Shown here: positions 26,271-32,368 of the stretch, in pieces
Numbering within the stretch: the first letter of the stretch is position 1
Layout: each line of letters starts with the position of its first letter
Origin: Sediminicoccus sp. KRV36
GTDB taxonomy: Bacteria; Pseudomonadota; Alphaproteobacteria; Acetobacterales; Acetobacteraceae
Reading direction: 5' to 3'
Length of the DNA: 64,000 nt
Assembly (NCBI RefSeq): GCF_023243115.1
Contig: NZ_CP085081.1
Span: forward strand, 4,847,256-4,911,255
The notes under the pieces: model-generated
Databases searched by the model: none
The model's input: only the letters and a program-made list of their open reading frames with translations
Told to the model about the DNA's origin: nothing
Position numbers and translations under genes: made by a program

Positions 26271-27620
26271 ATGGACCCGATCATCCTCGCCCGGATGCAA
26301 TTCGCGGCGAATATCTCGTTCCACATCCTGTTCCCCACCATCACCATCGCGCTCGGCTGGGTGCTGCTGTTCTTCAAGCTGCGCTTCGACCGCACGGGCG
26401 ATGCGGCCTGGATGGACGCCTATAAATTCTGGGTGAAGGTCTTCGCGCTGAGCTTCGCGCTCGGCGTCGTCTCGGGTGTGACGATGTCCTTCCAGTTCGG
26501 CACCAACTGGCCGGGCTTCATGGAGCGCGTGGGCAATATCGCGGGACCCCTGCTGGCCTATGAGGTGCTGACCGCCTTCTTCCTCGAAGCCTCCTTCCTG
26601 GCCGTCATGCTGTTCGGCTATGGCCGCGTGCCCAATCGCATCCACACGCTGGCGACGCTGCTGGTGGCGGGCGGCACCAGCGCCTCGGCCTTCTGGATCA
26701 TCGTGCTGAATTCCTGGATGCACACGCCCGCCGGCTATGAAATCCGCGACGGCGTGGCGCATGCGACGGATTGGCTGGCCATCATCTTCAACCCCTCCAT
26801 GCCGTATCGCCTGGCGCATATGATGCTCGCCTCCGGGCTGACCGTCGCCTTCCTGCTGGCCGGCCTTTCCGCCTGGCGCTGGCTGCGCGGGGACCGTGCG
26901 CCGGGTGTGCAGCGCGCGCTCAGGACGGGCGTGATGCTCGGCGCCATCCTGATTCCCATCCAGATCTTCGCGGGCGACATGCACGGGCTGAACACGCTGG
27001 AGCACCAGCCGCAGAAGGTCGCCGCGATGGAGGGTGTCTGGGAAACCGAGCGGAGCGCCGGCCTGCGCCTCTTTGCCATCCCCGATGAAGCGACGCGCAG
27101 CAACCGCTTCGAGATCGAGATTCCCTACCTGGCCAGCCTGATCCTGACCCACAGCCTGGATGGCGAAATCCGCGGCCTGAACGAATTCGTCGGCAACCAC
27201 CCGCCTGTCGCACCCGTCTTCTTCGCCTTCCGCATCATGGTGGGCGTCGGGATGCTGATGCTGCTGGTCTCCTGGTGGGGCGCCTGGACGCTGTGGCGCA
27301 AGGGCGTCACGCCCTGGCTGGCGCGCGTGCTGGTGGGCATGACCTTCTCCGGCTGGGTGGCCACGCTGGCCGGCTGGTACGTGACGGAGATCGGCCGCCA
27401 GCCCTGGCTCGTCACCGGCATCCTGCGCACGGGCGAGGCGGCGGGGCCGGTCGCCGCCACCACCATCGCGGCGTCGTTGTTCATGTATCTGGCGCTCTAC
27501 GGGGCGCTGCTCATCGCCTATATCTTCACGCTGATGCATCTGGCCCGCCGACCCACCTCGCCCGAGCCGGAGGAGCTTGGCCAGCGCGACCCGCTCAAGC
27601 CGCTGGCGGCAGCGGAATAG
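26271..27620 (+). CDS. cydA: Cytochrome bd-type ubiquinol oxidase subunit I
   Basis: A 449-residue membrane protein that oxidises quinol and reduces oxygen with subunit II. Near the N-terminus, RMQFAANISFHILFPTITIALG carries the high-spin haem ligand His at about residue 18. GDMHGLNTLEHQPQKVAAMEG holds the second conserved His and the quinol-site region. The length and short Q-loop fit the cyanide-insensitive (CIO-like) branch, not the long E. coli form; I infer this from length and motif spacing. It is followed 4 bp later by cydB. No cydX or cydDC genes are adjacent. Confidence 0.95.
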   Translation: MDPIILARMQFAANISFHILFPTITIALGWVLLFFKLRFDRTGDAAWMDAYKFWVKVFALSFALGVVSGVTMSFQFGTNWPGFMERVGNIAGPLLAYEVLTAFFLEASFLAVMLFGYGRVPNRIHTLATLLVAGGTSASAFWIIVLNSWMHTPAGYEIRDGVAHATDWLAIIFNPSMPYRLAHMMLASGLTVAFLLAGLSAWRWLRGDRAPGVQRALRTGVMLGAILIPIQIFAGDMHGLNTLEHQPQKVAAMEGVWETERSAGLRLFAIPDEATRSNRFEIEIPYLASLILTHSLDGEIRGLNEFVGNHPPVAPVFFAFRIMVGVGMLMLLVSWWGAWTLWRKGVTPWLARVLVGMTFSGWVATLAGWYVTEIGRQPWLVTGILRTGEAAGPVAATTIAASLFMYLALYGALLIAYIFTLMHLARRPTSPEPEELGQRDPLKPLAAAE

Positions 27621-27624
27621 GCCG

Positions 27625-28635
27625 ATGGACACCCTCCCCGACGGCGCCTGGCTGCCCATCACCTTCGCCGCCCTCATGGCCGTAGCCATGCTGCTCTATG
27701 CCGTGCTGGATGGCTTCGACCTTGGCGTGGGCATCATCCTGCGCGCCACGCCGGAGGAGGCGATGCGGGACCGCATGGTGGCCAGCATCGGCCCCTTCTG
27801 GGACGCGAACGAGACCTGGCTGGTGCTGGGCGTCGGGCTGCTGCTGGTCGCTTTCCCCTCGGCGCATGGCGTCATCCTGACCGCGCTCTACATCCCCGTG
27901 GCACTCATGCTGATGGGGCTGATCCTGCGCGGTGTCGCCTTTGAATTCCGCGCCAAGGCGCCGGCCCGGCAGAAGCCCGCCTGGGATGTGGTGTTCCAGG
28001 GCGGCTCGATCACGGCCGCCTTCAGCCAGGGCTGGATGCTGGGTGCGTATATCCTGGGCTTCGCGCCCGGCTGGGGTCCCTTTGCCTTCGCCATGCTGAC
28101 GGGGTTGTTCACCGTGGCCGGCTATGCGCTGATCGGCGCCTGCTGGCTGGTCTGGCGGGCCGAGGGGGATTTGCAGCTCTTTGCCACGCGCTGGGCACGC
28201 CGCGCGCTTTACGCCACCTGGGCCGGGGTGCTGGTGGTGAGTGCCGCCACCCCCTTCGCCAGCCCGCGCATCTTCGAACGCTGGTTCGCCATGCCGCAAA
28301 TCCTGGGGCTGATGCCCATCCCGCTGGCCACCGGGGCCTTGTTCCTGCTGATCCACATCTTCCTGCGCCGCTTTCCGCGCGCCGATCACAGCCTGGACTG
28401 GGTGCCCTTCGCCGCCACGGCGGCCATCTTCGTGCTGTGCTTCCAGGGCCTGGCCTACAGCTTCTGGCCCTATGTGGTGCCCGAGCGGCTGACCATCTTC
28501 GAAGCGGCGAGCGCGCCGGAATCGCTGATCATCATCCTGGTGGGGGCACTCGCGGTGCTGCCGATGATCGGGATCTACACCTACTTCATCTGGCGCATCT
28601 TCGGCGGCAAGGCGCGCGAGCTGAAATACTACTGA
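27625..28635 (+). CDS. cydB: Cytochrome bd-type ubiquinol oxidase subunit II
   Basis: A 336-residue polytopic partner of CydA. Family marks are LYAVLDGFDLGVGIILRAT near the N-terminus, SIGPFWDANETWLVLGVG, and ALMLMGLILRGVAFEFR. The start at 27625 is 4 bp after the cydA stop. The gene ends 7 bp before the 3' end of the convergent hldE-like gene, leaving no room for separate terminators. Confidence 0.95.
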   Translation: MDTLPDGAWLPITFAALMAVAMLLYAVLDGFDLGVGIILRATPEEAMRDRMVASIGPFWDANETWLVLGVGLLLVAFPSAHGVILTALYIPVALMLMGLILRGVAFEFRAKAPARQKPAWDVVFQGGSITAAFSQGWMLGAYILGFAPGWGPFAFAMLTGLFTVAGYALIGACWLVWRAEGDLQLFATRWARRALYATWAGVLVVSAATPFASPRIFERWFAMPQILGLMPIPLATGALFLLIHIFLRRFPRADHSLDWVPFAATAAIFVLCFQGLAYSFWPYVVPERLTIFEAASAPESLIIILVGALAVLPMIGIYTYFIWRIFGGKARELKYY

Positions 28636-28642
28636 ACCGCCC

Positions 28643-30034
28643 CTACTGGACGGCGCGAACCTCGCCACCCCATTCCCGCAGCAGCGCGGCGAGCGAGGCG
28701 CTTTCCGAGCCCGAAACCAGCACATCGGGCCGCAGCAGGCGCAGCAACTCCTCGCCGCCATGATCGGCGCCGATGGCGACCAGGTCCACCTCGGGGCGGG
28801 CGGCCATCAGATCGGCCATCTCGCCCTCATCCTGCACACCGACCAGCAGCCGGTCGCACCAGCGGCGGGCCTGCTCGGTGATGGCTTCCGGGCAGGGCTC
28901 GCCATTCACCTGCAACAGCCCGATGCGCCAGCCACGATGGCGCCAGCGCTCGATCACCTCGGCCGCCAGCGGCAGCGAGACGAGCTTGCGCATGGCGCTG
29001 CGGCCGGGCGTCAGCCCTTCGAGCAGCTCCTCGGCGCGGACCGGCGCGATGCCGGATTTGCGGCTGACAATGCCCAGCGCCAGCGCCGCCAGCCGTGCCA
29101 CGGAAGCCAGCGAAAGCCCGGTGGCCAGCCCCGCCGCAACCACGGCCACCACCGCGTCGCCACCACCCGCGGGGTCATGCACCTCGGAGGCTTCGGCGCG
29201 GAAATGGCGCACCGTCTCGCTGCCATCCGCCTCGCGCTCGACGAGCGTCAGGCCGTCCGGCGCGCGGGGCACCAGCACGGCGCGGAAATCATGCGCGCGC
29301 AGCAAGGCTGAGGCGGCGAGGGCGACGCTCGCTTCGTCATGCACCGGCATGCCGGTGGCGCCGGCCAATTCCTCGGGCTCGGGGATGATGAGGTCGGCGC
29401 CCGCGAAGCGCCCATGGTCGCCGCCCTTGGGATCCACCACGACGCGCCGCCCCGCGGCCTGGGCCGATGCGATGAGCCGCGCCGGGATATCGCCCGCCAG
29501 CACGCCCTTGCGGTAGTCCGAGAGCACGACCGTGGTGGTTGCCGCCACCGCATCGGAGGCGATCTTCACCAGCCGATCCGCCAGCCGTGGATGGATGGGG
29601 GCCGCCTGCTCCCGGTCGGTCCGCAGCAGGTGCTGGCCGCCTGAGAGGAAGCGCGTCTTGGTGGTGGTGGTGCGCCCGCCCTGCACCAGCAGCCAGGGCT
29701 CGACGCGCGGCTGGCCGCCGATCAGCCCGGTCAGGTCGCTGCCGGCCGCGTCATCGCCCACGACGGACACGAAGGCCACGGCCGCGCCCAGCGCCGTCAG
29801 GTTGCGCACCACATTGCCCGCACCGCCGGGCAGCGCCACCTCGCGCTCCACCGAGAGCACCGGCACCGGCGCCTCGGGGCTGATGCGGGAGACATGGCCG
29901 TAGATGTAGCGGTCCACCATCGCATCGCCGACGACGAGAACCGCACCGCGCGCCAGGGCCCGGACGGCATCGCGAAGTTGCGCGGGGGTTACGGCGTCAC
30001 GTCCGACGGGGCCGGGGGGGAATTTGGAAGACAT
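28643..30034 (-). CDS. hldE: HldE-like heptose kinase with degenerate nucleotidyltransferase half
   Basis: A protein of about 463 residues with the layout of HldE, which makes ADP-heptose for lipopolysaccharide. The N-terminal PfkB kinase (about 1-310) is intact in outline: DRYIYGHVSRISPEAPVPVL, GGAGNVVRNL, DYRKGVL and DPAGGGDAVVAV with the catalytic Asp (the usual DTTGAGD is altered around it). The C-terminal part aligns by order with the cytidylyltransferase fold, but where an H-X-G-H signature should stand there is QVNGEPCPEA, and the later K-G-G block is SGSES. It is therefore probably a kinase only. The start at 30034 is chosen over a longer frame to 30112. Confidence 0.85.
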   Translation of the reverse strand: MSSKFPPGPVGRDAVTPAQLRDAVRALARGAVLVVGDAMVDRYIYGHVSRISPEAPVPVLSVEREVALPGGAGNVVRNLTALGAAVAFVSVVGDDAAGSDLTGLIGGQPRVEPWLLVQGGRTTTTKTRFLSGGQHLLRTDREQAAPIHPRLADRLVKIASDAVAATTTVVLSDYRKGVLAGDIPARLIASAQAAGRRVVVDPKGGDHGRFAGADLIIPEPEELAGATGMPVHDEASVALAASALLRAHDFRAVLVPRAPDGLTLVEREADGSETVRHFRAEASEVHDPAGGGDAVVAVVAAGLATGLSLASVARLAALALGIVSRKSGIAPVRAEELLEGLTPGRSAMRKLVSLPLAAEVIERWRHRGWRIGLLQVNGEPCPEAITEQARRWCDRLLVGVQDEGEMADLMAARPEVDLVAIGADHGGEELLRLLRPDVLVSGSESASLAALLREWGGEVRAVQ

Positions 30035-30167
30035 CAAGCCTGAGAGGTAGCCCAGGCCAAGCCATGGCCGCAACAGAATGTGACGCTTCGTGGATCGGGG
30101 CGGCATAAACATTGGTTAAGGGTTGTCCGCTAGGCTGCCGGCATGGCGCAGGAAGGGCCTTCAACGC

Positions 30168-31160
30168 ATGACAATCGCGATACCGCGGGCCGAGCATGAC
30201 GCCACCGCCCGGTTGGGACGCCTCAGGGCGCGGGCGCCGGATTGGCGGTCCAGCCTGGCCGCGATGCCGCCGGGCGGCATCGCGGTGTTCCAGCCCGCCC
30301 TGCATGCCGGGGCGGCGCGCCGCGTGGCCCGCGCCCTGCTGGAGGAGGCCGCAACCTTGGGCGGCGGGCAGGTCCTGGGCTTCCCGGGCGGGGACCTCCT
30401 GCTGGGCAGCCACGCGGCGCCCGGCCAGCGGGCCGCCCAGGCGATAGGCCGGCTGCTCGGCCAGGAGCCCTTGGCCCGGCCCTTGCCGCAAGCCGTGGCC
30501 GAAGTCTCCGGCTGGTGCGAGGCGGCGAGCATGGCCCCGGCCCAGGAAAGCTGGAGCCTGGCCGCGCTGGAAGCCCATTGCGCGGCATGGCCGCTCGAAG
30601 CGGCCGCGCGGCTGACCGTGTTCGAGGAAAGCCGGGTGGGCGGCCCGGTCGCGCAAAGACTGGGCCCCGCACCCCTCGGCCTCGGGGATCCGGAGCTTGA
30701 AGCGATGGCGCGCGAATGGCTGTGCCGCCGCATTCTCGCCGCCCTCACCCATCCCGCCGAGCGCGGCCGGCTGCCCATGCTGCGGCCCGGCCTGCGCCTC
30801 ATCCTCGATCTGCCGCGCGGCGGCTTGCCCCAGCTCGGCCCGGCGATGCGGGCAGGGCATGCCGGTGACAGCCGCACCGATGAGGCCCTGGCGCCGGTGG
30901 CGCTGCTGCCGCTCGCCGCGCTCCATGATCCGGCCGGCTTCGCACGCATCGCCGAGGGGCTGCGCCAGGCCGGCTGGGCGGTGGGCCTGGTGGCCAGCCA
31001 CGCCGCGGCGCTGGATTGGCTGGAACTGCCGGACATCCTCTGGGCCATCCCGGCGGGTGAAGCACCACCCACCGCCTGGCCGGGGCGCCTCATCGCCCTC
31101 GGCCACCCGGCCCCGGCCTGGGCGCGTGCGCCGGGCATCTGGCATGAGGGCGGCGCATGA
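30168..31160 (+). CDS. Unrecognised protein, paralogue of its downstream neighbour
   Basis: I do not recognise this protein of 330 residues, rich in alanine, leucine and arginine and without membrane segments or export signal. It shares spaced motifs with the next gene: a PGGDL turn after a hydrophobic strand (about residues 76-83), RRILAALTHPAE in the middle, and PAGFARIAEGLRQAGWAVGL near the end. The PGGDL block sits as a GGDEF signature would, and the last third resembles a worn EAL barrel, but neither has catalytic residues. ATG at 30168 has GGAAGG upstream. Its stop overlaps the next start (ATGA). Confidence 0.6.
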   Translation: MTIAIPRAEHDATARLGRLRARAPDWRSSLAAMPPGGIAVFQPALHAGAARRVARALLEEAATLGGGQVLGFPGGDLLLGSHAAPGQRAAQAIGRLLGQEPLARPLPQAVAEVSGWCEAASMAPAQESWSLAALEAHCAAWPLEAAARLTVFEESRVGGPVAQRLGPAPLGLGDPELEAMAREWLCRRILAALTHPAERGRLPMLRPGLRLILDLPRGGLPQLGPAMRAGHAGDSRTDEALAPVALLPLAALHDPAGFARIAEGLRQAGWAVGLVASHAAALDWLELPDILWAIPAGEAPPTAWPGRLIALGHPAPAWARAPGIWHEGGA

Positions 31161-32368
31161 ATTTCATCACGCCGGCTGAGGCCGCCTGGGATGGCAGCGC
31201 TGCACCGCGTGCCACCCTGAACGCTCCCCTCACCGCCCCCTTGCGCGATGCCACGGCGCTGGCCGCCCTGGCGCGCGAATGCGTCACCTCGGGCGTGGAG
31301 CGGCGGGCGCTGCATGTCCGGCTCTCCCTGGTGCCGGCCCGCCTGCGGGAGCCGCGCCATCAGCGCCTGGTGCGGGAGGCGCTTTCCCCCTTGCTGCGGC
31401 CCACCCGCGCCCGGCTCTATGAGCTGCCAGGGGGGGACCTGGTTGCGCTCTCACCCCCGCCCGGGGATTACCTGGATGAGGTGCGCCACAACCTCGCCCG
31501 GCTGCTGCCCGAAATCCCGGCCGATACATTGCTGCCCGTGCTGCGACTGCCGGCCGAGGCCGCGCGGCTGCTGACGCTGGTGGAAGCGGCTCTCGGCCTG
31601 GACCATGCGCCGCCCGTCATGGCCCCCCCCGGGAACGGCTTGCCACCCCCCGGCACGGCCGAGCTGGACGCGGCCCAGCGCGCCCTGGCCACCGCCAATC
31701 TGACCGCCTTCCTGCGCCGCCAGGGCATCTGGCGCCTGACCCCTGGCGATGAGCAGCCCCAGCCGCTCTGGACCGAGTTGCGGCCCCATCTGCCCGACAT
31801 CGCCGCGGCCTTGCTGCCGGGCCGAGACCTGGGCGCCGCACCCGGCCTCGCGCGGCGCTTCCGGCAAGCGACGGAGCGCCGCATGCTGGCCGAGCTGGCC
31901 CATCCGCAGGAGGCGCGGCTGCTGGGCGATGCCTGCCTGCCGCTCACCCTGGGCAGCGTGCTGGAGGCGGAGTTCCTGCGCCTGGACAGCCTGCTCGGCC
32001 CGCATGGCCGGGCGCGGCTGCTGATCCCCGTCGCGGCGCCGGAGGCCCTGGCCGATCCTGGCGGCTTTGCCCTGCTGCGCCGCTTCGCCGTGCTGCGCGG
32101 CTGGACACTGGCGCTGGATGAGCTGGAACCGGCCCTGCTGCGCCTGATGCCAGCCCATCGGCTGGATTGCGCCATGCTGCGCCTGCGCTTCCACCCCGAC
32201 ATGCTGGCCGGCGATGCCGGCGCGCGCGGCAGCCTGGATTCCGCCCTGCCCGAGGATCGTGACCGCGTGATCCTCATGGGCGCGGATACGCCCGCCGCCA
32301 TCGCCTGGGGCTGGCAGCGGGGCATTTCCCGCTTCATGGGGCGGGTGCTGGAAGGGCGCTCGGCCTGA
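31157..32368 (+). CDS. Unrecognised protein with faint GGDEF/EAL-like character
   Basis: A soluble protein of 403 residues, start-coupled to the preceding gene by ATGA. Visible blocks are RLYELPGGDLVALSPPPGDYL (about 92-112), where a diguanylate cyclase would have its GGDEF turn, RRMLAELAHPQEARLLGDAC in the middle, and GWTLALDELEPALLRLMPAHRL followed by GWQRGISRFMGRVLEG at the end, which follow the order of strands 5-8 of an EAL domain. Metal- and substrate-binding acids of active EAL domains are not seen. If related, it is a catalytically dead receptor-like form. This is inference from pattern only. Confidence 0.6.
   Translation: MNFITPAEAAWDGSAAPRATLNAPLTAPLRDATALAALARECVTSGVERRALHVRLSLVPARLREPRHQRLVREALSPLLRPTRARLYELPGGDLVALSPPPGDYLDEVRHNLARLLPEIPADTLLPVLRLPAEAARLLTLVEAALGLDHAPPVMAPPGNGLPPPGTAELDAAQRALATANLTAFLRRQGIWRLTPGDEQPQPLWTELRPHLPDIAAALLPGRDLGAAPGLARRFRQATERRMLAELAHPQEARLLGDACLPLTLGSVLEAEFLRLDSLLGPHGRARLLIPVAAPEALADPGGFALLRRFAVLRGWTLALDELEPALLRLMPAHRLDCAMLRLRFHPDMLAGDAGARGSLDSALPEDRDRVILMGADTPAAIAWGWQRGISRFMGRVLEGRSA

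What the first reader, a model, noticed from the sequence alone, without database searches (positions are those of the whole stretch)
28643..30034. HldE-like protein whose nucleotidyltransferase half has lost H-X-G-H
The kinase half keeps the PfkB layout and catalytic Asp. The second half keeps fold-level order (E-Q-A-R-R-W-C-D-R-L-L-V-G-V, L-R-P-D-V-L-V) but has QVNGEPCPEA where the C-F-D-X-X-H-X-G-H signature belongs and SGSES for the K-G-G block, and the terminal stretch is missing. The adenylyl transfer step must then be done by another gene, or the domain binds a ligand or regulates the kinase. The kinase motif DTTGAGD is also altered to DPAGGGD.
Basis: partly seen in the sequence, partly recalled or inferred. 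Interest (0 to 1): 0.72.

Follow-up and report, generated by a model that had tools for sequence, protein, structure and literature searches.

The report
Eroded heptose enzyme with conserved pocket
A bacterial enzyme that normally carries out two steps in making a cell-surface sugar has lost its second active site and part of its ATP site, while an intact copy elsewhere in the genome can do the job; its sugar-binding part is as well preserved as in intact relatives, which suggests the old enzyme has taken on another role.

Summary
Window 28643-30034, minus strand, encodes a 463-aa HldE paralogue ("A") whose adenylyltransferase half keeps the HldC fold but none of the motifs looked for. The same genome holds a complete HldE ("B") 2.4 Mb away. 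Relatives form a decay series (intact, HxGH-only, lost, domain deleted). Of 146 genomes read as carrying A, 47 of 51 with an intact A transferase have no second one; 90 of 95 with an eroded one do. By genus majority (63): 39 eroded plus second, 21 intact plus none, 3 intact plus second. The kinase half is changed too: of residues at least 90% conserved in working HldEs, the window keeps 37 of 38 on the acceptor side but 25 of 34 on the donor side, with NxxE read EPEE. Divergence of the acceptor half is the same in eroded as in intact A proteins (0.219, 0.221) while the donor (0.336 to 0.464) and transferase (0.278 to 0.536) parts are looser. Best reading: a repurposed HldE, probably a heptose-phosphate-binding protein. 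GXGD and the catalytic Asp are kept in the window copy, so an active kinase is a close rival. Function is untested.

The parts
28643..30034 (-). HldE paralogue A, 463 aa, whole ORF (stop 28643-28645)
   Evidence: start supported by the length of homologues (P0002, 462 aa)
29495..29971 (-). acceptor-binding half of the PfkB/HldA domain (res 22-180); window keeps 37 of 38 pan-HldE residues of the N half
29015..29494 (-). donor (ATP) half of the kinase domain (res 181-340); window keeps 25 of 34 pan-HldE residues
29369..29380 (-). NxxE (Mg2+) motif changed to EPEE (res 219-222)
29267..29269 (-). T256 (pan-HldE Thr in the donor half) changed to Pro
29156..29167 (-). GXGD motif as GGGD (res 290-293), catalytic Asp293 kept
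29084..29086 (-). N317 (pan-HldE Asn) changed to Ala
28646..29014 (-). transferase (HldC-like) half, res 341-463: fold kept, motifs lost
   Evidence: TIGR02199 23.8 bits; AlphaFold pLDDT 87.6; best PDB match HldC 5xf2
28883..28912 (-). site of CFDxxHxGH, reads QVNGEPCPEA (res 375-384)
28700..28714 (-). site of KGG/KGADY, reads SGSES (res 441-445)
30123..31160 (+). divergent neighbour, 345 aa, no Pfam match; recognisable in 15 of 81 A loci (window included)
31157..32368 (+). divergent neighbour, 403 aa, degenerate EAL-like; found in the flank of 30 of 81 A loci (26 of 29 transferase-lost including this window, 4 of 44 intact, 0 of 8 HxGH-only)

Best explanation
This is an HldE that has been relieved of its original job and repurposed. 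Shown by sequence: the adenylyltransferase half keeps the HldC fold but no catalytic motif; a second, complete HldE with canonical motifs sits elsewhere in the genome; across the family, erosion of this copy goes with presence of a second HldE; the donor side of the kinase is altered in step; the acceptor (heptose-7-phosphate) side is nearly unchanged and its constraint has not relaxed. [quoted passage not shown] the transferase remnant is a tolerated, faster-evolving module that several lineages have deleted. Inferred, order not shown: the second HldE came first and the erosion followed.
For: Complete HldE-B in the same genome plus hldD over its cut-off. Decay series in 80 named loci and 194 extracted proteins: the NxxE Asn is absent in 104 of 107 transferase-lost or -absent A proteins, against 1 of 53 intact, 0 of 13 HxGH-only and 0 of 21 B. 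Cross-table over 146 genomes: intact 47 without and 4 with a second transferase; partial, degenerate or absent 90 with and 5 without (Fisher 1e-27, not corrected for kinship); 63 genera by majority: 39 / 21 / 3. Residues at least 90% conserved in both B and intact A: in the transferase-lost group 36 kept and 2 not in the N half, 14 and 20 in the C half (p 1e-6); window 37 of 38 and 25 of 34. Mean pairwise difference, intact A to lost A: acceptor 0.221 to 0.219, donor 0.336 to 0.464, transferase 0.278 to 0.536. A relative with broken GXGD (L166) keeps the acceptor residues compared. N half = acceptor, C half = donor in the ribokinase fold (PMC5931981, passages read). Fold: HldA 4e84, TM 0.91 by target length; HldC 5xf2.
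Against: The window copy keeps GXGD with the catalytic Asp, as do 75 of 86 transferase-lost members, and Asn-to-Asp in NxxE occurs in active ribokinase-family enzymes (PMC5931981). Within the genus the donor half is also constrained: dN/dS 0.177 (15 sequences) or 0.225 (16), against 0.275 in 17 intact A genes. The acceptor half is no more constrained than in intact A (0.148-0.168 against 0.171), so its slow change relative to B (120 of 120 pairs) may just be a property of the A lineage. No ligand or activity data. In one three-genome genus (L229-L231) 7 of the 26 acceptor residues compared are changed in the member checked. 73 of 219 family genomes have no A by my reading, whose row list was cut. 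Five genomes have an eroded A and no second transferase found (G129, G184, G195, G203, G239). gmhA-like and gmhB-like matches in this genome are under their cut-offs.
Confidence: 0.45

Rival explanations
1. Still an ATP-dependent sugar-phosphate kinase (HldA-like, or for another heptose-like substrate) with a dead transferase tail, kept for dosage or a side pathway.
For: GXGD and Asp293 kept in the window and in 75 of 86 transferase-lost members; dN/dS medians 0.168 and 0.225 in the two kinase halves, no higher than in intact A genes; HldA fold; Asn-to-Asp in NxxE is known in active family members (PMC5931981).
Against: N219, T256, T294 and N317, at least 90% conserved in working HldEs, are all changed here; TIGR02198 below its cut-off (291 of 345) while intact A and B pass; relatives in the same series lost the second Gly of GXGD (10 of 86 lost, 9 of 21 absent) or the Asp (1 of 86, 1 of 21).
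Confidence: 0.38
2. Kinase that has switched phosphate donor (pyrophosphate or ADP), as TM0415 did (to pyrophosphate) within the ribokinase family.
For: Donor side changed while the acceptor side is kept, a pattern like the one that led to the finding of TM0415 (PMC5931981, passages).
Against: The published PPi signature RXGRGD is absent at this site from all 194 proteins; donor-side letters differ between lineages instead of converging on one new set.
Confidence: 0.07
3. A decaying relic on its way to deletion, with no present function.
For: The transferase half is relaxed (dN/dS 0.448 against B's 0.288) and deleted in several lineages; many relatives lack A.
Against: Open frame in 18 of 20 same-genus genomes; acceptor half dN/dS 0.168 and no looser than in intact A; even the lineage with Asp changed to Glu shows dN below dS, on few changes.
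Confidence: 0.06

Closest known systems
Bifunctional HldE (NF008454; TIGR02198 + TIGR02199), here the paralogue at C1:2451540-2452697 and intact A orthologues such as L077 (Neoroseomonas marina)
   Same: Domain order, PfkB kinase fold, HldC fold, 37 of 38 conserved acceptor-half residues
   Different: No HxGH, KG or C-terminal STT motif, tail missing, NxxE and T256/N317 changed; below both curated cut-offs
HldA of Burkholderia cenocepacia (PDB 4e84)
   Same: Kinase fold, TM 0.91 by target length, 38-40% identity over the HldA entries
   Different: HldA is a stand-alone kinase (recalled; one search says kinase and transferase are separate genes in B. pseudomallei); A has donor-side changes and carries a transferase remnant
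HldC of B. pseudomallei (PDB 5xf2)
   Same: Best fold match of the C-terminal piece (E 1.7e-7, TM 0.77 by query length)
TM0415, PPi-dependent ribokinase-family kinase
   Same: Acceptor site kept while the ATP side changed (PMC5931981)
   Different: RXGRGD signature absent

Membership tests
bifunctional HldE | TIGR02198 kinase domain over its cut-off (345) | tested here: not met
   291.3 bits; intact A 367.6 and B 371.2
bifunctional HldE | TIGR02199 transferase domain over its cut-off (181.5) | tested here: not met
   23.8 bits; B itself 172.1, intact A 201.3
bifunctional HldE | HxGH and KG motifs | tested here: not met
bifunctional HldE | heptose 7-phosphate kinase and adenylyltransferase activities | not testable with these tools
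   no assay
PfkB/ribokinase superfamily | PfkB domain and fold | tested here: met
   PF00294 105.6 bits; 4e84
PfkB/ribokinase superfamily | GXGD with catalytic Asp | tested here: met
   GGGD, res 290-293
PfkB/ribokinase superfamily | NxxE magnesium motif | tested here: not met
   EPEE; Asn lost in 104 of 107 transferase-less A proteins
PPi-dependent ribokinase-family kinase | RXGRGD | tested here: not met
   0 of 194
pseudokinase / binding protein | no catalysis, ligand binding retained | not testable with these tools
   sequence only: 37 of 38 conserved acceptor-half residues kept

The most novel reading that the evidence does not exclude
More than once within one bacterial family, an HldE displaced by a second HldE has become a non-catalytic heptose-phosphate-binding protein: transferase dead or deleted, donor site dismantled, acceptor pocket and lid held constant. 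It would be a sensor or regulator of heptose/LPS supply, possibly linked to the divergently encoded degenerate EAL-like pair beside it.
Probability: 0.32. Interest if true: 0.72.

Novelty: new variant of a known kind. Interest (0 to 1): 0.5.

Why it matters
HldE feeds the heptose of the LPS inner core, and heptose metabolites are studied as immune-active signals and drug targets (titles and abstracts in the listing). Many of these proteins carry bifunctional HldE names in public databases, so pathway reconstructions would count two bifunctional enzymes where only one has transferase motifs. The family also offers a natural, replicated series of enzyme displacement, with intact, transitional, motif-dead and truncated states in related genomes, which makes a heptose-phosphate-sensing role directly testable.

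Tried and rejected
Assembly error or frameshift: rejected, near-identical orthologues in many assemblies. An intact His pair elsewhere in the domain: rejected, only H366 and H425 and no HxGH or HxxH. Stand-alone hldC as the partner: TIGR02199 in this genome gave B, the reverse fusion, this remnant and one weak partial hit, so the partner is a whole HldE. PPi switch: signature absent. Neighbours by Pfam: none for the two divergent genes at E up to 10; the EAL assignment rests on names of a few homologues and one precomputed PF00563 and on 5 of 29 family members matching PF00563 at E up to 1 (best 6e-6). Promoter/terminator scan of 28500-30300: nothing. Neighbour clustering mixed in shadow ORFs and was used for loci counts and leads only. 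The independent-pairs test for co-loss of the two motifs had too few starred pairs (2) to decide. Whether B was acquired several times is only suggested by its spread in the tree.

It evolves more slowly than in B (120 of 120 pairs) but like that of intact A, so the supported claim is that its constraint did not relax. Also, my list of 26 acceptor residues was picked from positions already known to be kept in the transferase-lost group, so 26 of 26 is partly by construction; 37 of 38 against 25 of 34 uses all positions that passed the 90% rule. For these two reasons I moved the best explanation from 0.50 to 0.45, the kinase rival from 0.33 to 0.38 and the novel case from 0.35 to 0.32.

Dropped rows: 7 of the 153 genomes searched (G205, G206, G226, G228, G237, G251, G254) were read as having no A gene and left out of the 146-genome table; of 17 paired genomes one (G005, truncated B) was left out of the matched comparison. 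The thresholds (185 and 60 bits, 150 for a second transferase) were set by me after seeing the scores. The 20 loci were not added to the 194-protein counts; their motifs are. The 194-protein set is redundant; after dereplication at 90% (108 rows) NxxE with both Asn and Glu is kept in 1 of 42 lost, 1 of 18 absent, 22 of 24 intact, 4 of 4 HxGH-only and 20 of 20 B. A and B were told apart by the better match to this genome's own two copies.

Full report
What is there. The ORF lies on the minus strand, 28643-30034, 463 aa. PF00294 matches residues 32-331. NCBIfam rfaE_dom_I gives 291.3 bits (cut-off 345) and rfaE_dom_II only 23.8 (cut-off 181.5), over residues 400-462. The window is the last 64 kb of a single 4.91-Mb contig. 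Close homologues are labelled Roseococcus in public sources.

Transferase half. The HxGH site reads QVNGEPCPEA, the KGG site SGSES, the C-terminal tail is missing, and there is no HxGH or HxxH in the domain. [quoted passage not shown] AlphaFold on the isolated piece (44 sequences, intact relatives among them) gives pLDDT 87.6, and its best PDB match is HldC 5xf2 (E 1.7e-7): fold kept, chemistry gone. The whole-protein model (pLDDT 89.9) matches HldA 4e84 best.

A second enzyme. The same genome has a 470-aa HldE (B; FANGCFDILHAGH, KGSDY, TPNANEL, DVSGAGD) at C1:2451540-2452697 and a reverse-order transferase-kinase fusion at C1:1263041-1264444. B passes the kinase cut-off (371.2) and is just under the transferase one (172.1 of 181.5). 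hldD is present over its cut-off; gmhA-like (191 bits, cut-off 209) and gmhB-like (110 bits, cut-off 150) matches are under theirs.

A family-wide series. Other genomes hold kinase-only versions of about 320-350 aa. A quick ML tree of the kinase domain (108 rows) needs 6 changes of the 'lost' label, at least 2 forced by starred branches; the window falls in a 25-row lost clade (SH-aLRT 99) inside a wider, more weakly supported group with intact Roseomonas.

Erosion goes with a second HldE. In 146 genomes read as having an A gene: A transferase intact, 47 without and 4 with a second transferase; partial, 27 with and 2 without; degenerate or absent, 63 with and 3 without. By genus majority (63 genera): 39 eroded plus second, 21 intact plus none, 3 intact plus second; 7 genera are mixed. 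Genus g4 is a replicate on its own: four genomes intact without a second copy, one partly eroded with one. The exceptions with eroded A and no second transferase are G129, G184, G195, G203 and G239; in G239 a second, fragmentary match exists. Genomes are related, so the Fisher value overstates independence. Of the 219 genomes, 71 had only a match that I read as B and 2 had none.

The kinase half has changed as well. In 194 extracted proteins (redundant set) the Asn of NxxE is missing in 104 of 107 transferase-lost or -absent A proteins, 1 of 53 intact, 0 of 13 HxGH-only and 0 of 21 B. At 72 positions one residue is at least 90% conserved in both B (20 rows) and intact or HxGH-only A (28 rows). 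In the transferase-lost group (42 rows) 36 of the 38 in the N half stay at 90% or more, but only 14 of the 34 in the C half; the window itself keeps 37 of 38 and 25 of 34, with Y210F, N219E, T256P, P279R, A291G, T294A, N317A, V324S and T329I. In the ribokinase family the N half binds the acceptor and the C half the donor, NxxE serves Mg2+, and the two Gly of GXGD hold donor phosphates (PMC5931981, passages read). The window keeps GXGD and Asp293. GXGD is intact in 75 of 86 lost and 11 of 21 absent members; the catalytic Asp is gone in 1 and 1. In a three-genome genus (L229-L231) it reads GVTE, and in L229 7 of the 26 acceptor residues compared differ. Which residues touch heptose or ATP was not read from a ligand-bound HldA structure.

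Selection. Mean pairwise difference in dereplicated groups, acceptor / donor / transferase: intact A (HxGH-only included) 0.221 / 0.336 / 0.278; lost A 0.219 / 0.464 / 0.536; domain-deleted A 0.269 / 0.538 / none; B 0.487 / 0.455 / 0.414. So the acceptor half did not loosen when the other two parts did. In 16 genomes of the genus with both genes, median dN/dS (Nei-Gojobori) is 0.168 / 0.225 / 0.448 for A against 0.409 / 0.251 / 0.288 for B; dN is lower in A than in B in 120 of 120, 110 of 120 and 16 of 120 pairs. Intact A genes (17) give 0.171 / 0.275 / 0.208, so the A acceptor half is no more constrained now than in working relatives, and within the genus the donor half is constrained too, which fits a changed but still used C half. 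Pairs are not independent, and dS near 0.6 in GC-rich DNA is rough.

Neighbourhood. A divergent two-gene unit (30123-31160, 31157-32368) lies beside A. The second gene is recognisable in the flank of 30 of 81 loci: 26 of 29 transferase-lost (window included), 4 of 44 intact, 0 of 8 HxGH-only. The lost loci are on the whole nearer relatives of the window and flanks differ in length, so this contrast is partly kinship and reach. It is a degenerate EAL-like family: a few homologues are named EAL in UniRef and one carries PF00563; 5 of 29 members match PF00563 at E up to 1, best 6e-6, the window copy not at all. Any functional link is conjecture.

How it most likely works. Shown: not a bifunctional HldE; backed by a complete one; transferase dead and donor side altered; acceptor side held. 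Inferred: binds a heptose phosphate and acts by binding. Close rival: a kinase with an altered donor side.

Literature. Searches for HldE with pseudoenzyme, heptose kinase with Acetobacteraceae, HldE with paralog, pseudokinase with PfkB and Roseomonas/Acetobacteraceae with heptose/HldE/rfaE (10 of 21 listed) showed no paper that appears to describe this, judged from search listings only, in an open-licence library. Passages were also seen in PMC4691232, PMC10339645 and PMC7948494.

Noticed in passing
L003:1000-2484 (+), own genome C1 near 1263041-1264444: Reverse-order fusion: transferase domain with SGNFNVLHAGH first, PfkB kinase second (TIGR02199 68.4 bits, TIGR02198 177.3 bits), followed by an ORF that looks like a sugar-phosphate nucleotidyltransferase (by eye). 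Probably a separate sugar pathway.
   Followed up: partly
window 30123-32368 (+): Two overlapping genes (start of the second overlaps the end of the first), no Pfam match, the second a degenerate EAL-like family found beside the eroded HldE in several genera.
   Followed up: partly
L229, L230, L231: Kinase-only A protein with catalytic Asp changed to Glu and several acceptor residues changed, yet dN below dS in three genomes (few changes).
   Followed up: partly
L178 (genome G129): Eroded transferase (QPAH for HxGH) with no second transferase found in a genome listed as 100% complete; heptose may have been given up there.
   Followed up: no
window 26271-28635 (+): Cytochrome bd oxidase subunits I and II with a MarR-type regulator just upstream, convergent with the HldE paralogue, 7 bases between the two genes. 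Among 80 named loci found near A only in L048 and L049, so not a conserved neighbour.
   Followed up: partly
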